Source of the DNA: Tubulanus polymorphus
Lineage: Eukaryota > Nemertea > Palaeonemertea > Tubulaniformes > Tubulanidae
Direction of reading: 5' to 3'
Assembly (NCBI RefSeq): GCF_964204645.1
Contig: NC_134028.1
Location: forward strand, 868,001-932,000
DNA length: 64,000 nucleotides
Each line of letters starts with the position of its first letter. The stretch's first letter is position 1. A program made the position numbers and the translations under genes. Positions 1 to 23,350 of this stretch are shown here, piece after piece. The notes beneath the pieces were generated by a model. That model was not told the origin of the DNA. It saw nothing but the letters and a program-made list of their open reading frames with translations, and did not search any database.

Positions 1-1189
1 TTATTGAAATGCCATTGCAAAACAAGAACATAAAAACACTGAAACTGAACATTATTCAATTAATGGTAAAAAGCTTTCCTAAAAAGATGTTTTGAGGTAT
101 GCGTTTAAAAGTATCGACGTATTCCCGAATACAATAAAACATTCCATCTCAGCGGGGCGTTATACTTCATTTAGAAAGTAGGCCAGCCTCTTCAGGGGCC
201 TGTTGCATAGTCACGGCTTAGATTTAAGACTGGTCTAAGACCAACTAAGTTCTATACTCGATCTTAAGATTTAAGACCACTTTTGGACTTAAGTCACGAC
301 TGTGCAACTGGGCCCAGTAGTCTACCAACTGCGTTCACCATTGAAGGAAATTCACGTTCATTTTATATAATTAAGTTGGTTGATGTTTTGTTTTGTATTT
401 CATTACGTAGTATAACCGTCGGTAAATGGTAAACAAACTTCGTTGCAACCAAGGCTCTGAAAACGACCAGTTTATTTTCATGGCGGCATCATCGCAGCAT
501 AGGAGCAGCGGGGATTTAAATTTTTTGCTATTTAGCTTTCGATCAAGTTTATTCCATATGCCGGGTGTATAAAGGTGACGCTGACTCAGGAACAGCAGTG
601 CAATGTTTGGATTGTTAATCTTAAGCATTTTAGTCAGAGTGAATTCGTGGTTTTATCTGTCAGATTGAAGGTTTTATGTTGAACCGTCGTTTTGTTTCCA
701 ATATCGACAACAAATTCGGCTTTCGTATCTCGTCGACTAACCGAATGCGCTTAACTTCCGAACTATCCTCCGGAATATGGTTCCGATTTACTGAAAATTC
801 GGTTTCGCATAGTTGAACTTAGTTGGAGTCGACTAACTTCAGTAGATAACCGAAGTTGGCCTTTACTGTGGCATGTGAGTATAAAAATTAGTTCACAGAA
901 ATACCGCTGATGATAAACATAGCGGCAGCACTTGACGGTCAAGATCTGACACTGTTCGCCGTTCCTTCTGTGGCATGCGAGATTCCGTACCTCCATAAAG
1001 AATGTTATATTTCATGGCACTAACTCCATATTATCTACTTAGATGCAAAATTGGTGTTTTTTCAATAAGAAAATAATTGAGAATCAAATTCCTATATGAT
1101 TTATGTAACCACAATCGACGTTTCATGAAGAGATTTTAACGGTGGCCGCTACTAAATTGATAACTCATATTTACTTCCGCGTTTGTGAA
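1..1189. other. Intergenic, no gene seen
   Basis: No exon with recognisable protein similarity was found on either strand. The stretch contains one copy of a short inverted-repeat element (195-315). It also has two occurrences of a 'ctgtggcatg' motif (near 868 and 969) that recurs in diverged repeats at 11.7 kb and 61 kb. Short open frames at 371-628 and 763-996 show no family features. Confidence 0.6.
195..315. mobile_element. MITE-like short inverted-repeat element, copy 1
   Basis: The two ends are imperfect inverted repeats. The left end runs ggggcctgttgcatagtc and the right end reads gactgtgcaactgggccc. The interior has the complementary strings cttaagac and gtcttaag, so the whole piece can fold back on itself. 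It has no coding capacity. Related copies occur at 27237-27354, 41093-41235, 48427-48522, 51822-51888 and 53009-53119, which marks it as a dispersed non-autonomous family. No clear target-site duplication could be set by eye. Confidence 0.6.
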
Positions 1190-4100
1190 ATATTCGCATC
1201 TAGGGCAATCTTAAGACCTGCTGCATATGGCGTCACAAGCCCCGAGGCTTGTCACGCCATATTGGGGCCTGACACGCCATGTGGTAAACGTAAAATGAAA
1301 ATCAAATCCTATGCAGGAGATGAAACGTCGACTAAGTCTCGCGGGTTTTTCTTCCGAAGTTGAAATATTCGGTTGGATATTAATTTAACTTAGATGATTT
1401 ACAACGTATTATATATACATAATAAGAACTACATATTACATCGCATTTACACTAAAATGAGTTTTACAGAATAGAAATTGATCGTTGTTTGTTAATCTAA
1501 TGCAGTGTACACACATTTTGAAACACAATTTAAACAATCATATATTTCGCCAGCATATGAAAAATACAAAAACATTACATATATATCTACTGAATGAGTT
1601 TTACAGAATAAAGATTTTAATTAACTATCTTACATTTCAATGAATCATTCATCTATTTCACATGATTTGTTGATCAATTAGTCTAAGAAGAACATGGATA
1701 ATGTTAGAAAAACATATATGGTGAGCCAGGCTCCAATCTAGTGTGATCTGCAGTCATATGGCTCCTAAAATCGCTAAGCCTTCTACATGGCGTGTCAGGC
1801 CCCAAATGTTCTGCAGCCAATATGGCGTGTCAAGCCCCAAATTGTCTACAGAATAGCTTCAATAATTGAAACATGGTTTGTCGAACGGTTTTCTATGGAA
1901 GCAATTAAATTATATGTTTAGTTTCAATTAGTTATATATTGTTCATGATTTGATAATCACAAAACAAATACTGCTAGAAAAACCGCGATTTGTCTTCTAT
2001 ATGGCGTGTCAAGCCCCGAATATTCTGCAGCCAATATGGCGTATCAGGCCCCAAATGGTCTGCAGAATAGCTTCAATTGAAACATGGCGTGAGAGGATCC
2101 GATCAGTTTTCCTATAATTGTCACTAATTATCATAAATATTCAAAGATTTATCATTCTACATGGTTTGTCAATCATTTAGACTTAGAAAGAAAGCAAATA
2201 TTGTTTCAAAAATAGCTCCTCAAATCACGCTGTCTTTCACATGGCGTGTCAGGCCCCAAATGTTCTGCAGTCAATATGGCGTGTCAGGCCCCAAACGGTC
2301 TGCAGAATAGCTTCAATTGAGACATGGCGTGAGAAGACCCGAACGATTTTCCGTACAAACAAATGAATAATTGTCATTGATTATCATAAATATTCAAAGA
2401 TTTATCATTCTACGTGGATTGTCAATCATTTAGACTCAGAACAAAAGGCAAATATTGTTTCAAAAAGCTCCTAAAATCACGCTGTCTTCTACATGGCGTG
2501 TCAAGCCCCAAACGGTCTGCAGAATAACTTCAATTGAGACATGGCGTGAGAGGACCCGATCGATTTTCCGTACAAACAAATGAATAATTGTCATTAATTA
2601 TCGTAAATATTCAAAGATTTATCATTCTCCGTGGATTGTCAGTCATTTAGACTCAGAAAGAAGGCAAATATTGTTTCAAAAATAGCTCCTCAAATCACGC
2701 TGTCTTTCACATGGCGTGTCAGGCCCCAAATGTTCTGCAGCCAATATGGCGTGTCAGGCCCCAAACGGTCTGCAGAATAGCTTCAATTGAGACATGGCGT
2801 GAGAAGACCCGAACGATTTTCCGTACAAATAAATGAATAATTGTCATTGATTATCATAAATATTCAAAGATTTATCATTCTACGTGGATTGTCAATTATT
2901 TAGACTCAGAACAAAAGGCAAATATTGTTTCAAAAAGCTCCTAAAATCACGCTGTCTTCTACATGGCGTGTCAGGCCCCAAACGGTCTGCAGTCAATATG
3001 GCGTGTCAGGCCCCAAACGATTTTCCGTACAAACAAATGAATAATTGTCATTAATTATCATAAATATTCAAAGATTTATCAGTTTGTCAATCATTTAGAC
3101 TTAGAAAAAAGGCAAATATTGTTTCAAAAAGCTCCTCGAATCACGCTGTCTTCTACATGGCGTGTCAGGCCCCAAATGTTCTGCAGTCAATATGGCGTGT
3201 CAGGCCCCAAACGGTCTGCAGAATAGCTTCAATTGAGACATGGCGTGAGAAGACCCGAATGATTTTCCGTACAAACTAATGAATAATTGTCACTAATTAT
3301 CATAAATATTCAAAGATTTATCATTATACATGGTTTGTCAATCATTTAGACTTAGAAAAAAAGGCAAATATTGTTTCAAAAAGCTCCTCAAATCACGCTG
3401 TCTTTCACATGGCGTGTCAGGCCCCAAATGTTCTGCAGTCAATATGGCGTGTCAGGCCCCAAACGGTCTGCAGAATAGCTTCAATTGAGACATGGCGTGA
3501 GAAGACCCGAACGATTTTCCGTACAAACAAATGAATAATTGTCATTGATTATCATAAATATTCAAAGATTTATCATTCTACGTGGATTGTCAATCATTTA
3601 GACTCAGAACAAAAGGCAAATATTGTTTCAAAAAGCTCCTAAAATCACGCTGTCTTCTACATGGCGTGTCAGGCCCCAAACGGTCTGCAGAATAGCTTCA
3701 ATTGAGACATGGCGTGAGAAGACCCGAACGATTTTTCCGTACAAACAAATGAATAATTGTCACTAATTGTCTTAAATGTTCAAAGATTAATCCTTCTATA
3801 TGATTTGTCAATTATTTAGTCTTAGAAAAAAAGCAAATACTGTTACAAAAAGCTCCTAAAACCACGCTGTCTTCTACATGGCGTGTCAGGCCCCAAAGTG
3901 TTCTGCCGCCAATATGGCGTGAGAGTACGCGATCAGTTTTCTATGGAAGCAATTAATTGTCACTAATCATATCTTTAGTTTCAATTAGTTATATATTGTT
4001 CATAATCATAAAGTCTAAGAAAAAAAACAAATACTGCTAGAAAAATCGCGATTTGTCTTCTATATGGCGTGTCAGGCCCCAAACGGTCTACAGAATATAG

Positions 4101-4760
4101 CTTCAATTTACATGGCGTGAGAGGACCCGATCAGTTTTCCGTAGAAATAAATGAAAAATTGTTGACTGATTATCTTAAATTAGTACAATAATCATTAAGT
4201 CTTAGAAATAGGTTTATAAATCGTTGTTTCTATTTTGTTCATATGTAAAAATATACAAAATCGCTTATGTAAATGTAGCTGATGATCTCCTGATCGTCTC
4301 GCACCATAACGGAAACCTGTAAAAAACATATTCGAAGAATTTTACATAAAAATCTTTCGATATATATGCATCTGAATATAGTTATGAAGTAAAAACGGGA
4401 TATAATTTTCTTTCAAAGTGGTTGCACTGAACGGAATACTACAATATAACGTATAAGTACATATTATATTTAGACAATATTTAGTAAGTATATATTTAGA
4501 CAATAAGTTAAGAAAAAATAGAAATTCATTACACATTGACATACCGGTACTTGAAATTATCTCATTCAGGTTTTACACGTCGTATCGGACTTAAAAACGT
4601 GGTCCGTTCGACGCGAACATATATCTTCGTTCCGCGTGAATTATATATAGTCTGCATTTTACTCGGGGCTTGTGACGCCATGTCAGATATGGCGTGACAA
4701 GCCCCGGGGCTTGTGACGCCATGTTCTGCTGATTCTTAAGATTGACTTCACTCAATATTC
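1190..4760. mobile_element. Foldback-like element 1 enclosing a 220/250-bp satellite
   Basis: A 36-bp segment at 1227-1262 recurs in inverted orientation at 4687-4722 with one mismatch. The match continues outward: CAATCTTAAGA at 1206-1216 pairs with its reverse complement at 4734-4744, and an AATATT string lies further out on both sides. Each 36-bp end is itself nearly palindromic (ATGGCGT.ACAAGCC against its complement). The interior is an array whose core, ATGGCGTGTCAGGCCCC, is a variant of the same terminal motif. No transposase frame is visible, so the element would be non-autonomous. Foldback elements and Helitron-derived elements of bivalves ('pearl') also carry internal tandem arrays; assignment to either is open. 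Confidence 0.55.
1720..4135. repeat. Satellite array, units of about 220 and 250 bp
   Basis: Repeats are phased by 'ctgtctt' followed by acatggcgtg, with starts near 2230, 2481, 2701, 2953, 3146, 3398, 3648 and 3866. The spacings are therefore about 251, 220, 252, 193, 252, 250 and 218 bp. Long units carry one extra copy of a roughly 32-bp block (ATGGCGTGTCAGGCCCCAAA plus a ctgcag spacer). The long and short types partly alternate, giving a higher-order period near 470 bp. Edge copies (1720-2230 and 3866-4135) are more diverged, as expected of an array homogenised in its middle. Non-coding. Confidence 0.85.
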
Positions 4761-5106
4761 GAGTCATATCAAACTGCAGAGTGCGCACGGGGCCGTGCGC
4801 AGGAGGCCGCGCGCAGGGGGCCGCTTTAATAAAGTGAAAACCACACGATATTATTTACGAAACGGCAATACATATACATAGTAGTATGCGATATGAAACT
4901 ACTCCTACTTCTACCAATTAATCAAATGCATAACCACCATCAACCAGTTTATGATTTTACCATCGAGATGCGCATAAAATGGTACACTAAGAACAGTATA
5001 CAGAGTATATATTATTTATCAAAATACTCCGCCGAATCTACGAATTTTTATCTATCTGCTGCTGCTGCTGGAGAGGCGCGCAGGGGGCCGCGTGAATTTT
5101 TATCTA

Positions 5107-5107
<1 letters not shown>

Positions 5108-5155
<48 letters not shown>
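5108..5155 (+). repeat. (CTG)16 trinucleotide repeat
   Basis: There are sixteen uninterrupted CTG triplets, preceded by a short CTG tract at 5058-5069. One core motif of the adjacent minisatellite (gcgcagggggccgcg) lies between the two tracts. No coding exon was recognised around it. A long pure tract of this kind is likely to vary in length between individuals. Confidence 0.95.
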
Positions 5156-5157
<2 letters not shown>

Positions 5158-5579
5158 ACATGGAGCATAAAATATAAAACTGCGTTATTGACTCCAAGGG
5201 TTTGTCAAAAAGCTTGTTTCTAATAGATTACTTTGCATTTCTGTTAAACCTACTTGATACGGTACATAATTTACTTTTTGATCTACTGTTTCATTGTTAG
5301 GTTGTTGATTAATTGCCCCGCTATATTTCTATTTGATTCTTAACTATTGTATAATTACGCCCTAGTTTGCTCTCATCATTAAGATTTGTTAAGTTTGTAA
5401 CTGTCTTCATGCTGTATATTAGTGTGCATCACATCTTAATCACAGCTTAATTAATCTCTTTGTTTTATACTGTGTAACAGTGTATTAACCCTAGTTTGTA
5501 CCCCTAATTCCATGTGACGTTAGTTTCTTAGATAAAGAATTGCGAAGTTTCAGTACGATGATAGAAAATGACATGGTTT

Positions 5580-8500
5580 AATAGTTTTACTAAGTTTTAC
5601 TTGTCTTCTGCTGGATAGGTGCGCAGGGGGCCGCGGTTTAATAGTTTTACTAAGTTTTACTTGTCTTCTGCTGGATAGGTGCGCAGGGGGCCGCGGTTTA
5701 ATAGTTTTACTAAGTTTTACTCGTCTTCTGCTGGATAGGTGCGCAGGGGGCCGCGGTTTAATAGTTTTACTAAGTTTTACTCGTCTTCTGCTGGATATGT
5801 GCGCAGGGGGCCGCGGTTTAATAGTTTTACTAAGTTTTACTTGTCTTCTGCTGGATAGGTGCGCAGGGGGCCGCGGTTTAATAGTGTAAATAGTTTTACT
5901 TGTCTACTGCTGGATAGGTGCGCAGGGGGCCGCGTTTTAAAAGTTTTAATAGTTTTACTTGTCTTCTGCTGGATTGGTGCGCAGGGGGCCGCGGTTTAAT
6001 AGTGTAAATAGTTTTACTTGTCTACTGCTGGATAGGTGCGCAGGGGGCCGCGGTTTAATAGTTTTACTAAGTTTTACTCGTCTTCTGCTGGATAGGTGCG
6101 CAGGGGGCCGCGGTTTAATAGTGTAAATAGTTTTACTTGTCTTCTGCTGGATGGGTGCGCAGGGGGCCGCGTTTTAAAAGTTTTAATAGTTTTACTTGTC
6201 TTCTGCTGGATAGGTGCGCAGGGGGCCGCGGTTTAATAGTTTTAATAGTTTTACTTGTCTTCTGCTGGGTGGGTGCGCAGGGGGCCGCGTTTTAAAAGTT
6301 TTAATAGTTTTACTTGTCTTCTGCTGGATAGGTGCGCAGGGGGCCGCGTTTTAAAAGTTTTAATAGTTTTACTTGTCTTCTGCTGGATAGGTGCGCAGGG
6401 GGCCGCGGTTTAATAGTTTTAATAGTTTTACTTGTCTTCTGCTGGATTGGTGCGCAGGGGGCCGCGTTTTAAAAGTTTTAATAGTTTTACTTGTCTTCTG
6501 CTGGATAGGTGCGCAGGGGGCCGCGGTTTAATAGTTTTACTAAGTTTTACTTGTCTACTGCTGGATATGTGCGCAAGGGGCCGCGGTTTAAAAGTTTTAA
6601 TAGTTTTACTTGTCTTCTGCTGGATAGGTGCGCAGGGGGCCGCGTTTTAAAAGTTTTAATAGTTTTACTTGTCTTCTGCTGGATTGGTGCGCAGGGGGCC
6701 GCGTTTTAAAAGTTTTAATAGTTTTACTTGTCTTCTGCTGGATAGGTGCGCAGGGGGCCGCGGTTTAATAGTTTTAATAGTTTTACTTGTCTTCTGCTGG
6801 GTGGGTGCGCAGGGGGCCGCGTTTTAAAAGTTTTAATAGTTTTACTTGTCTTCTGCTGGATAGGTGCGCAGGGGGCCGCGGTTTAATAGTTTTACTAAGT
6901 TTTACTTGTCTACTGCTGGATATGTGCGCAAGGGGCCGCGGTTTAATAGTTTTACTAAGTTTTACTTGTCTACTGCTGGATATGTGCGCAAGGGGCCGCG
7001 GTTTAATAGTTTTACTAAGTTTTACTTGTCTTCTGCTGGATAAGTGCGCAGGGGGCCGCGTTTTAAAAGTTTTAATAGTTTTACTTGTCTTCTGCTGGAT
7101 AGGTGCGCAGGGGGCCGCGTTTTAAAAGTTTTAATAGTTTTACTTGTCTTCTGCTGGATAGGTGCGCAGGGGGCCGCGGTTTAATAGTTTTAATAGTTTT
7201 ACTTGTCTTCTGCTGGGTGGGTGCGCAGGGGGCCGCGTTTTAAAAGTTTTAATAGTTTTACTTGTCTTCTGCTGGATAGGTGCGCAGGGGGCCGCGTTTT
7301 AAAAGTTTTAATAGTTTTACTTGTCTTCTGCTGGATAGGTGCGCAGGGGGCCGCGGTTTAATAGTTTTAATAGTTTTACTTGTCTTCTGCTGGGTGGGTG
7401 CGCAGGGGGCCGCGTTTTAAAAGTTTTAATAGTTTTACTTGTCTTCTGCTGGATAGGTGCGCAGGGGGCCGCGTTTTAAAAGTTTCAATAGTTTTACTTG
7501 TCTTCTGCTGGATAGGTGCGCAGGGGGCCGCGTTTTAAAAGTTTTAATAGTTTTACTTGTCTTCTGCTGGATTGGTGCGCAGGGGGCCGCGTTTTAAAAG
7601 TTTTAATAGTTTTACTTGTCTTCTGCTAGATAGGTGCGCAGGGGGCCGCGGTTTAATAGTGTAAATAGTTTTACTTGTCTTCTGCTGGATGGGTGCGCAG
7701 GGGGCCGCGTTTTAAAAGTTTTAATAGTTTTACTTGTCTTCTGCTGGATAGGTGCGCAGGGGGCCGCGGTTTAATAGTTTTACTTGTCTTCTGCTGGGTG
7801 GGTGCGCAGGGGGCCGCGTTTTAAAAGTTTTAATAGTTTTACTTGTCTTCTGCTGGATAGGTGCGCAGGGGGCCGCGTTTTAAAAGTTTCAATAGTTTTA
7901 CTTGTCTTCTGCTGGATAGGTGCGCAGGGGGCCGCGTTTTAAAAGTTTTAATAGTTTTACTTGTCTTCTGCTGGATTGGTGCGCAGGGGGCCGCGTTTTA
8001 AAAGTTTTAATAGTTTTACTTGTCTTCTGCTGGATAGGTGCGCAGGGGGCCGCGGTTTAATAGTTTTAATAGTTTTACTTGTCTTCTGCTGGATTGGTGC
8101 GCAGGGGGCCGCGTTTTAAAAGTTTTAATAGTTTTACTTGTCTTCTGCTGGATAGGTGCGCAGGGGGCCGCGGTTTAATAGTTTTACTAAGTTTTACTTG
8201 TCTACTGCTGGATATGTGCGCAAGGGGCCGCGGTTTAATAGTTTTACTAAGTTTTACTTGTCTACTGCTGGATATGTGCGCAAGGGGCCGCGGTTTAATA
8301 GTTTTACTAAGTTTTACTTGTCTTCTGCTGGATAGGTGCGCAGGGGGCCGCGTTTTAATAGTGTAAATAGTTTTACTTGTCTGCTGCTGGATAAGTGCGC
8401 AGGGGGCCGCGTTTTAATAGTGTAAATAGTTTTACTTGTCTTCTGCTGGATGGGTGCGCAGGGGGCCGCGTTCTAAAAGTTTTAATAGTTTTACTTGTCT

Positions 8501-9768
8501 TCTGCTGGATAGGTGCGCAGGGGGCCGCGGTTTAATAGTTTTAATAGTTTTACTTGTCTTCTGCTGGGTGGGTGCGCAGGGGGCCGCGTTTTAAAAGTTT
8601 TAATAGTTTTACTTGTCTTCTGCTGGATAGGTGCGCAGGGGGCCGCGTTTTAAAAGTTTTACTAAGTTTTACTTGTCTACTGCTGGATATGTGCGCAAGG
8701 GGCCGCGGTTTAATAGTTTTACTAAGTTTTACTTGTCTACTGCTGGATATGTGCGCAAGGGGCCGCGGTTTAATAGTTTTACTAAGTTTTACTTGTCTTC
8801 TGCTGGATAAGTGCGCAGGGGGCCGCGTTTTAAAAGTTTCAATAGTTTTACTTGTCTTCTGCTGGATAGGTGCGCAGGGGGCCGCGGTTTAATAGTGTAA
8901 ATAGTTTTACTTGTCTTCTGCTGGATGGGTGCGCAGGGGGCCGCGTTCTAAAAGTTTTAATAGTTTTACTTGTCTTCTGCTGGATAGGTGCGCAGGGGGC
9001 CGCGGTTTAATAGTTTTAATAGTTTTACTTGTCTTCTGCTGGGTGGGTGCGCAGGGGGCCGCGTTTTAAAAGTTTTAATAGTTTTACTTGTCTTCTGCTG
9101 GATAGGTGCGCAGGGGGCCGCGTTTTAAAAGTTTTAATAGTTTTACTTGTCTTCTGCTGGATTGGTGCGCAGGGGGCCGCGTTTTAAAAGTTTTAATAGT
9201 TTTACTTGTCTTCTGCTGGATAGGTGCGCAGGGGGCCGCGGTTTAATAGTTTTACCATAGTTTTACTTGTCTACTGCTGGATATGTGCGCAGGGGGCCGC
9301 GTTTTAAAAGTTTTAATAGTTTTACTTGTCTTCTGCTGGATAGGTGCGCAGGGGGCCGCGGTTTAATAGTTTTACTAAGTTTTACTTGTCTACTGCTGGA
9401 TATGTGCGCAAGGGGCCGCGGTTTAATAGTTTTACTAAGTTTTACTTGTCTTCTGCTGGATAGGTGCGCAGGGGGCCGCGGTTTAATAGTTTTACTAAGT
9501 TTTACTTGTCTTCTGCTGGATAGGTGCGCAGGGGGCCGCGTTTTAATAGTGTAAATAGTTTTACTTGTCTTCTGCTGGATAGGTGCGCAGGGGGCCGCGT
9601 TTTAAAAGTTTTAATAGTTTTACTTGTCTTCTGCTAGATAGGTGCGCAGGGGGCCGCGTTTTAATAGTGTAAATAGTTTTACTTGTCTTCTGCTAGATAT
9701 GCGCGCAGGGGGCCGCGTTTTAATAGCGTAGATAGTTATACTTGTCTTCTGCTAGATAGGTGCGCAGG
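5580..9768. repeat. About 70 copies of a 57-60 bp minisatellite
   Basis: Every unit ends in the GC-rich block gtgcgcagggggccgcg and begins with an AT-rich stretch of the type gtttaatagttttactaag. The first five units are exactly 60 bp; later ones are 57-60 bp because of two alternative spacers (tttactaag, tttaatag or tgtaaatag). Runs of several units recur as blocks, for example the gggtgggtgcgc variant, which shows higher-order copying. Units nearly divisible by three give long open frames, but the encoded peptide only mirrors the DNA repeat. The array ends at 'gcgcagggttagggtt', running into TTAGGG-like sequence. Confidence 0.95.
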
Positions 9769-10592
9769 GTTAGGGTTAAATTTAATTTCCTGATGATTCA
9801 TTTCAGCTTATCCAGTTATTATTCGAATGACGTTTTACACAAGGAAGCTCTCGTCTACATCGTTAGCATTTACAATGGACTACCTTATGAAAACAGTGAC
9901 GCAATATGCCGACGGACTGAAGCAAAGTCGTTAGTTGACGTATATAATCTATTTCGAAAATATTACGGTACAGATTAAGAATATTGAAATCGGAAATCAA
10001 GCGATCTATAATATCCATATGTATAAATATTTTATTAAGTCTGTGATCTATAAAATCAAGCGATCTATAAAATCCAGTACAACAAGATACGTGAGCTTCA
10101 ATTTACATGCATGAATATTTAAGTCAGTGATGTGTATGTATTATCGTTATTATGCTATTACCAATTATCGAGCCGCCTCTGATACTTATGATGTTTAAGT
10201 GTCAATCGAATATGTATGTCAAATAAATAAATGAACAGTGAAACTCGCATTTTCTCAGCTTTCATCTTATTTTGGACGACTATTTTTTGCTGTTGAAAAA
10301 CGACGACATGGTGAATGGGAAATTCAGGAGTTTAAAAAACCGAGTTATGTACGTAGAGGACGGCCCCCGGCGCGATTGACCTTAATTTTCATAGTAACAA
10401 TATCAATCCTATATTTACGATTTTGAATTACATGATTAAGCATATATAAAAGTTCTAGCTCAAAAATCAAAATTAAATCAGCTTAATTGTTTTTTCTATT
10501 TAAAAAAGCGAGTTAAAATAAATTTCTGCATTATTGCTAAAAAATCATCGTTTCGTCTAGCATCACATACCAGTTCTCACTTTACAATACCC
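9769..10592. other. AT-rich spacer with one possible terminal exon
   Basis: This lies between the minisatellite and the inverted GC-rich core. A splice-acceptor-like string (gattcatttcag) ends at 9806 and is followed by an open frame to a TAA at 9976-9978. An AATAAA lies at 10222-10227. The 56-residue frame matches no family I recognise. It could be a captured or degenerate terminal exon, or chance. The rest is plain AT-rich sequence. Confidence 0.25.
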
Positions 10593-22679: not shown

Positions 22680-23350
22680 GGGCACTTTGCCTGTGGTCTT
22701 CCCTTTGATCGGAATGGACTAAACCTTGGGTTAGGGTTACATCATATCCTTTGGGTTAATCCATTCTATTCCTAAGGTCCATAGCAGGTCACCAGTGGTC
22801 AACCCCAGTAGTGGAATGGACTAACCCTAGGGTTAGGGTTGAATCACAACCCTACGGTCCAGAGCTGGTGACCAGTGGTCAACCCTAGTAGTGGAATGGA
22901 CTAACCCTAGGGTTAGGGTTGAATCACAACCCTAAGGTCCAGAGCTGGTGACCAGTGGTCAACCCTAGTAGTGGAATGGACTAAACCTAGGGTTAGGGTT
23001 ACATCATATCCTTTGGGTTAATCCATTCTATTCCTAAGGTCCATAGCAGGTCACCAGTGGTCAACCCCAGTAGTGGAATGGACTAACCCTAGGGTTAGGG
23101 TTGAATCACAACCCTACGGTCCAGAGCTGGTGACCAGTGGTCAACCCTAGTAGTGGAATGGACTAACCCTAGGGTTAGGGTTGAATCACAACCCTAAGGT
23201 CCAGAGCTGGTGACCAGTGGTTACCCTAGTAGTGGAATGGACTAACCCTAGGGTTAGGGTTGAATCACAACCCTAAGGTCCAGAGCTGGTGATCAGTGGT
23301 CAACCCCAGTGGTGGAATGGACTAACCCTAGGGTTAGGGTTAAATCATAT
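22680..23350. repeat. 80-bp array with TTAGGG-like palindromes
   Basis: Units are phased by gtggaatggactaaccctag at 22811, 22891, 22971, 23072, 23152, 23231 and 23311. The spacing is 80 bp, except one of 101 bp where a longer unit is inserted. The block 22811-23071 is duplicated, giving a higher-order period near 261 bp. Each unit contains the palindrome AACCCTAGGGTT followed by AGGGTT, resembling telomeric TTAGGG repeats. Related units occur at 32585-32830, so this is a dispersed family rather than a true telomere. Confidence 0.9.

What the first reader, a model, noticed from the sequence alone, without database searches (positions are those of the whole stretch)
1190..4760. Satellite array bounded by inverted copies of its own core (element 1)
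The 36-bp ends (1227-1262 and 4687-4722) are inverted with one mismatch. Homology continues outward through CAATCTTAAGA at matching distance. The motif of those ends is also the core amplified inside as a 220/250-bp satellite. An element whose terminal repeat seeds an internal array suggests a foldback or Helitron-like non-autonomous transposon, possibly an undescribed family.
Basis: partly seen in the sequence, partly recalled or inferred. Interest (0 to 1): 0.75.

Follow-up and report, generated by a model that had tools for sequence, protein, structure and literature searches.

The report
Array-carrying transposon that captures receptor genes
The repeat array in this stretch is the inside of a DNA transposon that duplicates 8 bases of target when it inserts; a long relative carries what looks like its transposase gene, and another copy has swallowed pieces of two host receptor-gene regions.

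Summary
The same two ends pair at 28 further loci of this genome. Of 27 copies with both ends readable, 21 have perfect 8-bp target-site duplications (TSDs), 2 near-perfect, 4 none in place. Of 16 joined-flank sites searched, 3 have a paralogous empty site. Two copies on different contigs differ at 1 of 2,767 bases. So it is mobile, but neither Helitron nor foldback.

A 10.6-kb copy with the same ends carries the array beside a multi-exon gene: a transposase-like domain, a CxC4 cysteine cluster of KDZ transposases (just under Pfam's cut-off; over it in relatives), OTU-like and PHD domains. Best reading: a non-autonomous member of a KDZ (Kyakuja-Dileera-Zisupton)-related family whose array repeats the motif of its ends. 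The catalytic domain did not match the Pfam KDZ model, so placement stays open.

Unexpectedly, one copy's middle is 7.2 kb of host DNA from two loci 1.16 Mb apart, each with a receptor (GPCR) gene, joined into the array; another holds a 0.8-kb receptor fragment. New variant of a known kind.

The parts
1189..1196 (.). left copy of the 8-bp target-site duplication, AATATTCG
   Evidence: identical to 4754-4761; 21 of 27 copies have a perfect 8-bp TSD, cross-copy control 0 of 702
1197..4753 (+). whole non-autonomous element, 3,557 bp
   Evidence: ends conserved to the base and flanked by TSDs in the paired copies
1197..1216 (+). left terminus CATCTAGGGCAATCTTAAGA, holding the 11-bp subterminal inverted repeat at 1206-1216
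1227..1260 (.). left near-palindrome (two array-core halves head to head)
   Evidence: DNA fold z -3.9
1264..1280 (-). inverted core copy next to the left palindrome
1787..4080 (+). array: 18 cores ATGGCGTGTCARGCCCC in one orientation, spacings mainly 35 and 217-218 bp
4662..4681 (-). inverted core copy inside the right end
   Evidence: 20/20 complementary to 1227-1246
4689..4722 (.). right near-palindrome, inverted partner of 1227-1260
   Evidence: DNA fold z -6.1
4734..4753 (+). right terminus TCTTAAGATTGACTTCACTC, subterminal inverted repeat at 4734-4744
4754..4761 (.). right copy of the 8-bp target-site duplication

Best explanation
The window holds a non-autonomous DNA transposon. Shown: discrete ends, 8-bp TSDs at AT-rich targets, paralogous empty sites, and a near-identical pair at two sites. 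Inferred: a transposase acting in trans, made by long relatives such as the 10.6-kb copy on contig C11 and related to KDZ (Kyakuja-Dileera-Zisupton) enzymes, binds the palindromic core at both ends, cuts the element out and inserts it with an 8-bp stagger. The internal array repeats one half of that end palindrome, so it probably offers extra transposase-binding sites, and perhaps control of the transposase gene, which lies next to it in the long copy. Shown: array length differs between closely related copies by unit-sized or several-hundred-base steps. Inferred: by unequal exchange or slippage in repair. Shown: in one copy the middle of the array is replaced by host DNA from two receptor-gene loci, with 4-bp, 2-bp and no micro-homology at the three joints. 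Inferred: template switching while a break in the element was repaired.
For: Ends co-occur: 41 left-end and 70 right-end rows (many of the latter self-inverse; both lists capped at 40 scored candidates), giving 28 pairs besides the window. TSDs: 21 of 27 perfect, 2 with 1-2 mismatches; cross-copy control 0 of 702; consensus about NAAAWTTN, 73% AT against 60% in the flanks. Empty sites: 3 found among 16 junctions searched: 148/151, 93/105 and 122/155 identical across the junction with one copy of the target, which has one mismatch in the last two. L001 and L009: 2,767 bp, 1 mismatch, no gap, different contigs and TSDs. Long copy L025+26: same ends, TSD AAAACTTT, array, and a 248-aa domain on the minus strand with 36 matching rows in the genome; CxC4 26.0 bits, E 9e-6, cut-off 26.9; PHD 29.5 bits over cut-off; OTU below cut-off in two successive frames covering profile positions 2-42 and 42-106. 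Three contig-C12 copies share that gene at 89-92%, the array and the right end. CxC4 lies within 3 kb of this domain at 9 of 13 CxC4 matches of the genome, 3 of the 9 over the cut-off. Capture.
Against: The 248-aa domain and its relatives match no transposase model in Pfam; PF18758 (KDZ) matches 20 places, none at these loci; hhalign of the two small alignments gives probability 0.3%; a profile search of solved structures gives nothing usable (best E 1.1). My calling it a transposase rests on its context and on recalled similarity to fish HMGXB3-like/Zisupton proteins, not on a database hit. CxC4 in the long copy itself is just under the cut-off. The long copy matches the window element closely only near its ends (first 550 bp 64% identical; right 0.94 kb about 84%), so it is a relative, not the parent. 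4 of 27 copies lack a TSD in place; 2 more of the 29 have decayed left ends. The window's own empty site was not searched. No binding, transcription or transposition was measured.
Confidence: 0.78

Rival explanations
1. A Helitron/Helentron-type rolling-circle element (such elements often carry central tandem arrays and subterminal inverted repeats).
For: Central array and short subterminal inverted repeats, as reviewed for Helitrons/Helentrons (passages of PMC12628747); hairpins at the ends; Helitron proteins exist in this genome.
Against: Precise 8-bp TSDs in 21 of 27 copies and three empty sites with a single target copy; the ends are CA...TC, not Helitron's TC...CTAG (recalled); 0 of 58 Helitron_like_N matches lie in the 29 copies; a long copy carries a different gene.
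Confidence: 0.02
2. A foldback element of the P/Galileo/Tetris type, with the array as part of long inverted repeats.
For: Tetris of Drosophila virilis has about 220-bp tandem repeats, a 37-bp stretch shared between terminal domain and array, and 8-10 bp TSDs (passages of PMC4079207). Galileo has transposase-binding sites in its tandem repeats (abstract of PMC3688188).
Against: No long inverted repeats: the inverted parts here are 11 bp plus end palindromes, and the 18 array cores of the window copy all point one way. The gene of the long copy shows no P-element or THAP model in Pfam and has CxC4 instead.
Confidence: 0.05
3. Same transposon, but mobilised by another 8-bp-TSD superfamily (for example hAT), with the KDZ-like gene a passenger in one long copy.
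For: 8-bp TSDs are also usual for hAT and P (passages of PMC12730594 and PMC3706591); no catalytic-domain match to KDZ.
Against: The gene occurs with the array and right end in at least four long copies (L025+26 and the C12 copies L039-L041, though the latter share flanks and may be segmental duplicates), at 89-92% identity; the terminal CATCTAGGG does not look like hAT ends (recalled).
Confidence: 0.13

Closest known systems
Zisupton and the KDZ (Kyakuja-Dileera-Zisupton) DNA transposons
   Same: 8-bp TSD (Zisupton and the Dileera family cited), multi-exon gene, KDZ-associated cysteine cluster, non-coding ends; KDZ elements of fungi carry extra genes (passages of PMC12730594 and PMC9297572).
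   Different: The catalytic domain does not match PF18758; ends lack terminal inverted repeats (Kyakuja also lacks them but makes 7-bp TSDs); an internal array of the end motif; animal receptor-gene cargo.
Tetris (Drosophila foldback transposon with TIR-220 array)
   Same: about 220-bp units, array related to the terminal domain, variable unit number, 8-10 bp TSDs (abstract and passages of PMC4079207).
   Different: Tetris has long TIRs containing the arrays, no known autonomous copy, and large stand-alone arrays; here there is one array, 352 of 390 core matches lie in the fetched copies, and a coding relative is found.
Galileo (P superfamily)
   Different: THAP transposase and long TIRs; neither seen here.
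Transduplication in Turmoil-1 of C. elegans and Pack-type elements of plants
   Same: DNA transposon carrying fragments of host protein-coding genes (abstract of PMC2572040; passages of PMC13317346).
   Different: Turmoil-1 has them in its inverted repeats; here 7.2 kb from two loci replaces the middle of the array in one copy, in a different kind of transposon.

Membership tests
Cut-and-paste-type DNA transposon (class II, TSD-forming) | fixed-length target-site duplication at precise ends | tested here: met
   21 of 27 perfect 8-bp TSDs, 2 more with 1-2 mismatches, 4 not in place; control 0 of 702
Cut-and-paste-type DNA transposon (class II, TSD-forming) | empty sites with a single target copy | tested here: met
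   3 found among 16 of 23 junctions searched; 7, including the window's, not searched
Cut-and-paste-type DNA transposon (class II, TSD-forming) | terminal inverted repeats | tested here: inconclusive
   no inverted repeat in the outer 9 bases; 11-bp subterminal inverted repeat from base 10 and inverted palindromes inside
KDZ (Zisupton-like) | KDZ transposase domain PF18758 | tested here: not met
   no match in the long copy or in the relatives scanned; 20 matches elsewhere in the genome; hhalign probability 0.3% on shallow alignments
KDZ (Zisupton-like) | KDZ-associated CxC cysteine cluster in the transposase gene | tested here: inconclusive
   CxC4 26.0 bits, E 9e-6, against a cut-off of 26.9 in the long copy; over the cut-off in three relatives' loci; 9 of 13 genome matches beside this gene
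KDZ (Zisupton-like) | 8-bp TSD (Zisupton; 7 bp in Kyakuja) | tested here: met
KDZ (Zisupton-like) | catalytic activity / RNase H-like fold | not tested
   no structure job was submitted: the tool's stated list of accepted sources does not name loci cut from genomes
Helitron/Helentron | no TSD; TC...CTAG or Helentron-type ends; Rep-helicase gene | tested here: not met
   8-bp TSDs; CA...TC ends; 0 of 58 Helitron_like_N matches in the 29 copies
Foldback | long inverted repeats made of or containing the tandem repeats | tested here: not met
   longest arm pair 43 nt in the window element; array cores in one orientation
hAT | hAT transposase gene between these ends | not tested
   no hAT model was searched in the genome; Pfam scans of frames of the long copy showed only a weak zf-BED

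The most novel reading that the evidence does not exclude
A deep, so far unmodelled animal branch of the KDZ transposons in which an array of transposase-binding sites is also the zone where host genes are taken up, so that the family works as an animal counterpart of plant Pack elements and shuffles chemoreceptor-like GPCR genes between loci.
Probability: 0.3. Interest if true: 0.75.

Novelty: new variant of a known kind. Interest (0 to 1): 0.52.

Why it matters
It links three things usually described apart: a transposon's ends, a satellite-like array made of the same motif, and uptake of host genes into that array. Copies with 6 to 31 core matches and nearly identical ends, plus a coding relative, make it testable whether array sites drive mobilisation. 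Capture of two receptor-gene regions is a clear animal example of gene transduplication by a DNA transposon, in a genome rich in such receptors (136 and 150 matching rows at the limits).

Tried and rejected
Helitron reading: rejected on TSDs and on the Helitron_like_N search. Foldback reading: rejected on inverted-repeat anatomy. Stand-alone satellite: not supported, since 352 of 390 core matches lie in 39 fetched sequences; of the 100 places that one search listed, I counted by eye 99 inside known copies and 1 (C2:31164956) outside. Direct KDZ catalytic match: sought and not found. Relatives in viral contigs: 42 pattern matches, none confirmed. Other window copies: a BLAST of the element against the rest of the window gave no row. 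Shared 8-9 kb cargo of L027+28 and L029+30: no long non-repetitive frames; only the 143-aa receptor frame of L029+30 was Pfam-scanned, function unknown. Species: not identified.

Papers: Zisupton listing (30 of 65 papers shown); further listings (69 shows 10 of 43) showed no title or abstract start describing an array-bearing KDZ/Zisupton derivative or GPCR capture by one; the library holds open-licence papers only, and the original Zisupton paper was seen only as a citation.

Full report
Setting. The window is G000:C4:868001-932000 of an unnamed 268-Mb genome in 77 contigs, twelve of them large in what I saw (and contig lengths). Hundreds of rhodopsin-family receptor matches make an animal likely; the species was not identified.

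What is there. Genome searches with each end gave 41 left-end rows and 70 right-end rows, the second list swollen by self-inverse hits and both capped at 40 scored candidates. Pairing by coordinate and strand within 15 kb gave 29 loci including the window. Of the 41 left rows, 29 are paired; 2 belong to a complex locus (L035) and 1 is an inverse hit in it; 4 were fetched without a right end being seen in the stretch taken (L036, L058-L060); 5 were not followed.

Boundaries and TSDs. In 27 of the 29 pairs both ends could be read by a fuzzy motif. The element starts CATCTAGGGCAATCTTAAGA and ends TCTTAAGATTGACTTCACTC. The 8 bases on either side are identical in 21 of 27, differ by 1 in L022 and 2 in L020, and do not match in place in L002, L014, L019 and L029+30 (in the last, GAAAGAAT recurs 10 bases further out). 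Comparing left flanks of one copy with right flanks of another gave 0 matches in 702. The 21 TSDs lean to A at positions 2-4 and T at 6-7, 73% A+T against 60% in the flanks. The two remaining pairs (L031+32, L033+34) have decayed left ends.

Mobility. Joined flanks of 16 of the 23 copies with a TSD were searched in two batches; the second batch was crowded by one repeat, and the third batch of 7, with the window's own site, was not run. Three paralogous empty sites appeared: for L001 (148/151 identical over the junction, exact target), L016 (93/105, one mismatch in the target) and L004 (122/155 with gaps, one mismatch in the target; a repeat family). L001 and L009 on contigs C4 and C1 are both 2,767 bp, differ at one base without gaps, and have different flanks and TSDs. 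This shows that the array travels as part of the unit.

The array. Core spacings across copies are dominated by 35 bp (105 times) and 216-218 bp (77 times). Short copies run from 1,852 to 6,421 bp with 5 to 31 core matches including those in the end palindromes. The window copy and L010 differ mainly by 252-bp and 447-bp gaps; window and L014 by one 951-bp gap. L015 holds three long duplicates that reach into its right part. The core is confined largely to these elements: 352 of 390 genome matches lie in the 39 sequences fetched.

The coding relative. L025+26 (C11, 10,622 bp, TSD AAAACTTT) has the same ends: 100% over 93 bases on the left and 99% over 116 on the right. Inside, on the minus strand, are open frames: a 502-aa frame with weak zinc-finger matches, a 75-aa frame with CxC4 (26.0 bits, cut-off 26.9), a SAP-like frame below cut-off, a 248-aa domain without any Pfam match, two OTU-like frames below cut-off that continue each other, and a PHD finger over cut-off. 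The array lies between the upstream side of these frames and the right end. Exon joints were not determined. Three C12 copies (L039-L041) share the gene (89-92%), array and right end, but also the flank beyond the right end with each other, so they may be segmental duplicates, and their left ends were not seen.

What the gene is. The 248-aa domain has 36 matching rows in the genome, including two loci with a 622-aa frame that continues into a Josephin-like stretch just below cut-off and that have CxC4 34.2 bits and PHD frames nearby. CxC4, described by Pfam as associated with KDZ transposases, has 13 matches in the genome at E up to 1; 9 lie 1.0-1.7 kb from a locus of this domain (loci merged by hand), 3 of the 9 over the cut-off, and two pairs among the nine look like recent duplicates. 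The other four, three of them over the cut-off, are elsewhere. Against KDZ proper: no PF18758 match here and no hhalign support. I recall similar fish proteins annotated HMGXB3-like or Zisupton; no call confirms that. So 'KDZ-related' is my reading; '8-bp-TSD transposon with an associated CxC4 gene' is the firm part.

Captured host DNA. L023+24 (C8, 9,422 bp, TSD CAGAAATT) has ordinary ends and array on both sides (99% to the window), but positions 1208-8429 are host DNA: 1,990 bp at 99.0% to C6:7939632-7941621 and 5,263 bp at 98.7% to C6:6775521-6780775 in reverse. Both hold rhodopsin-family receptors: the first gene is cut short at its 3' end, while the frame of the second is identical over 274 residues to its source. 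The joints share CAGT, share TG, and have two extra bases. No element end was listed at either C6 locus (capped), and a 90% paralogue lies beside the first one, so the direction host-to-element is the simpler one. L029+30 has 0.8 kb at 92% to the receptor locus C7:3646643-3647443, sitting exactly between other cargo and the right-hand array. Whether a copy moved after capture is not shown: each receptor capture is known from one copy. L027+28 and L029+30 share 8-9 kb of other cargo at 86-95% at two sites, which suggests that cargo-bearing copies can move.

Mechanism, step by step. Shown: precise ends, TSDs, empty sites, movement, unit-wise array change, host cargo. Inferred: transposase identity, binding to the core, a role of the array, repair-based capture. 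Galileo gives a measured precedent for binding sites in internal repeats (abstract only, PMC3688188).

Novelty. Array-bearing non-autonomous transposons and gene capture are each known (PMC4079207, PMC12628747, PMC2572040; abstracts or passages). I saw no title or abstract start describing their combination in a KDZ-related element in the searches, in an open-licence library and with capped listings. Hence new variant of a known kind.

Noticed in passing
window 5577-9769: 59-bp minisatellite, about 71 copies, 93% matches, starting some 800 bp right of the element; its unit holds GTGCGCAGGGGGCC, which also occurs at 4781-4823 beside the element.
   Followed up: no
window 22711-23347: Tandem units of 80-262 bp that contain AACCCTAGGGTTAGGGTT, telomere-like.
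   Followed up: no
L035 (G000:C1:8695500-8698000): Two element ends lie head to tail, only 16 bp (CTGTGAATGCTGTGAT) apart: one element beside or into another.
   Followed up: partly
L027+28 and L029+30 (C5:1721570-1732982, C1:25984488-25998017): Two older copies share 8-9 kb of non-coding cargo with a minisatellite; origin unknown.
   Followed up: partly
L042 and L043 (C4:1322000-1330500, C6:16124200-16132700): Nearly identical (99.8% over 8.46 kb) relatives of the transposase-like gene, with Josephin-like, PHD and CxC4 stretches; their ends were not reached.
   Followed up: partly
L002, L003, L031+32: Copies that contain long frames resembling reverse transcriptases by eye, probably later retroelement insertions; no domain search was run.
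   Followed up: no
L015 (G000:C2:22647305-22654331): Longest array-only copy; a segment of array plus right-hand unique sequence is present three times.
   Followed up: partly
L001 left and right flank (C4:12658367-12661753): The target of this copy is the centre of a 32-base palindrome (TTCCAATATACGCAAATTTGCGTATATTGGAA).
   Followed up: no
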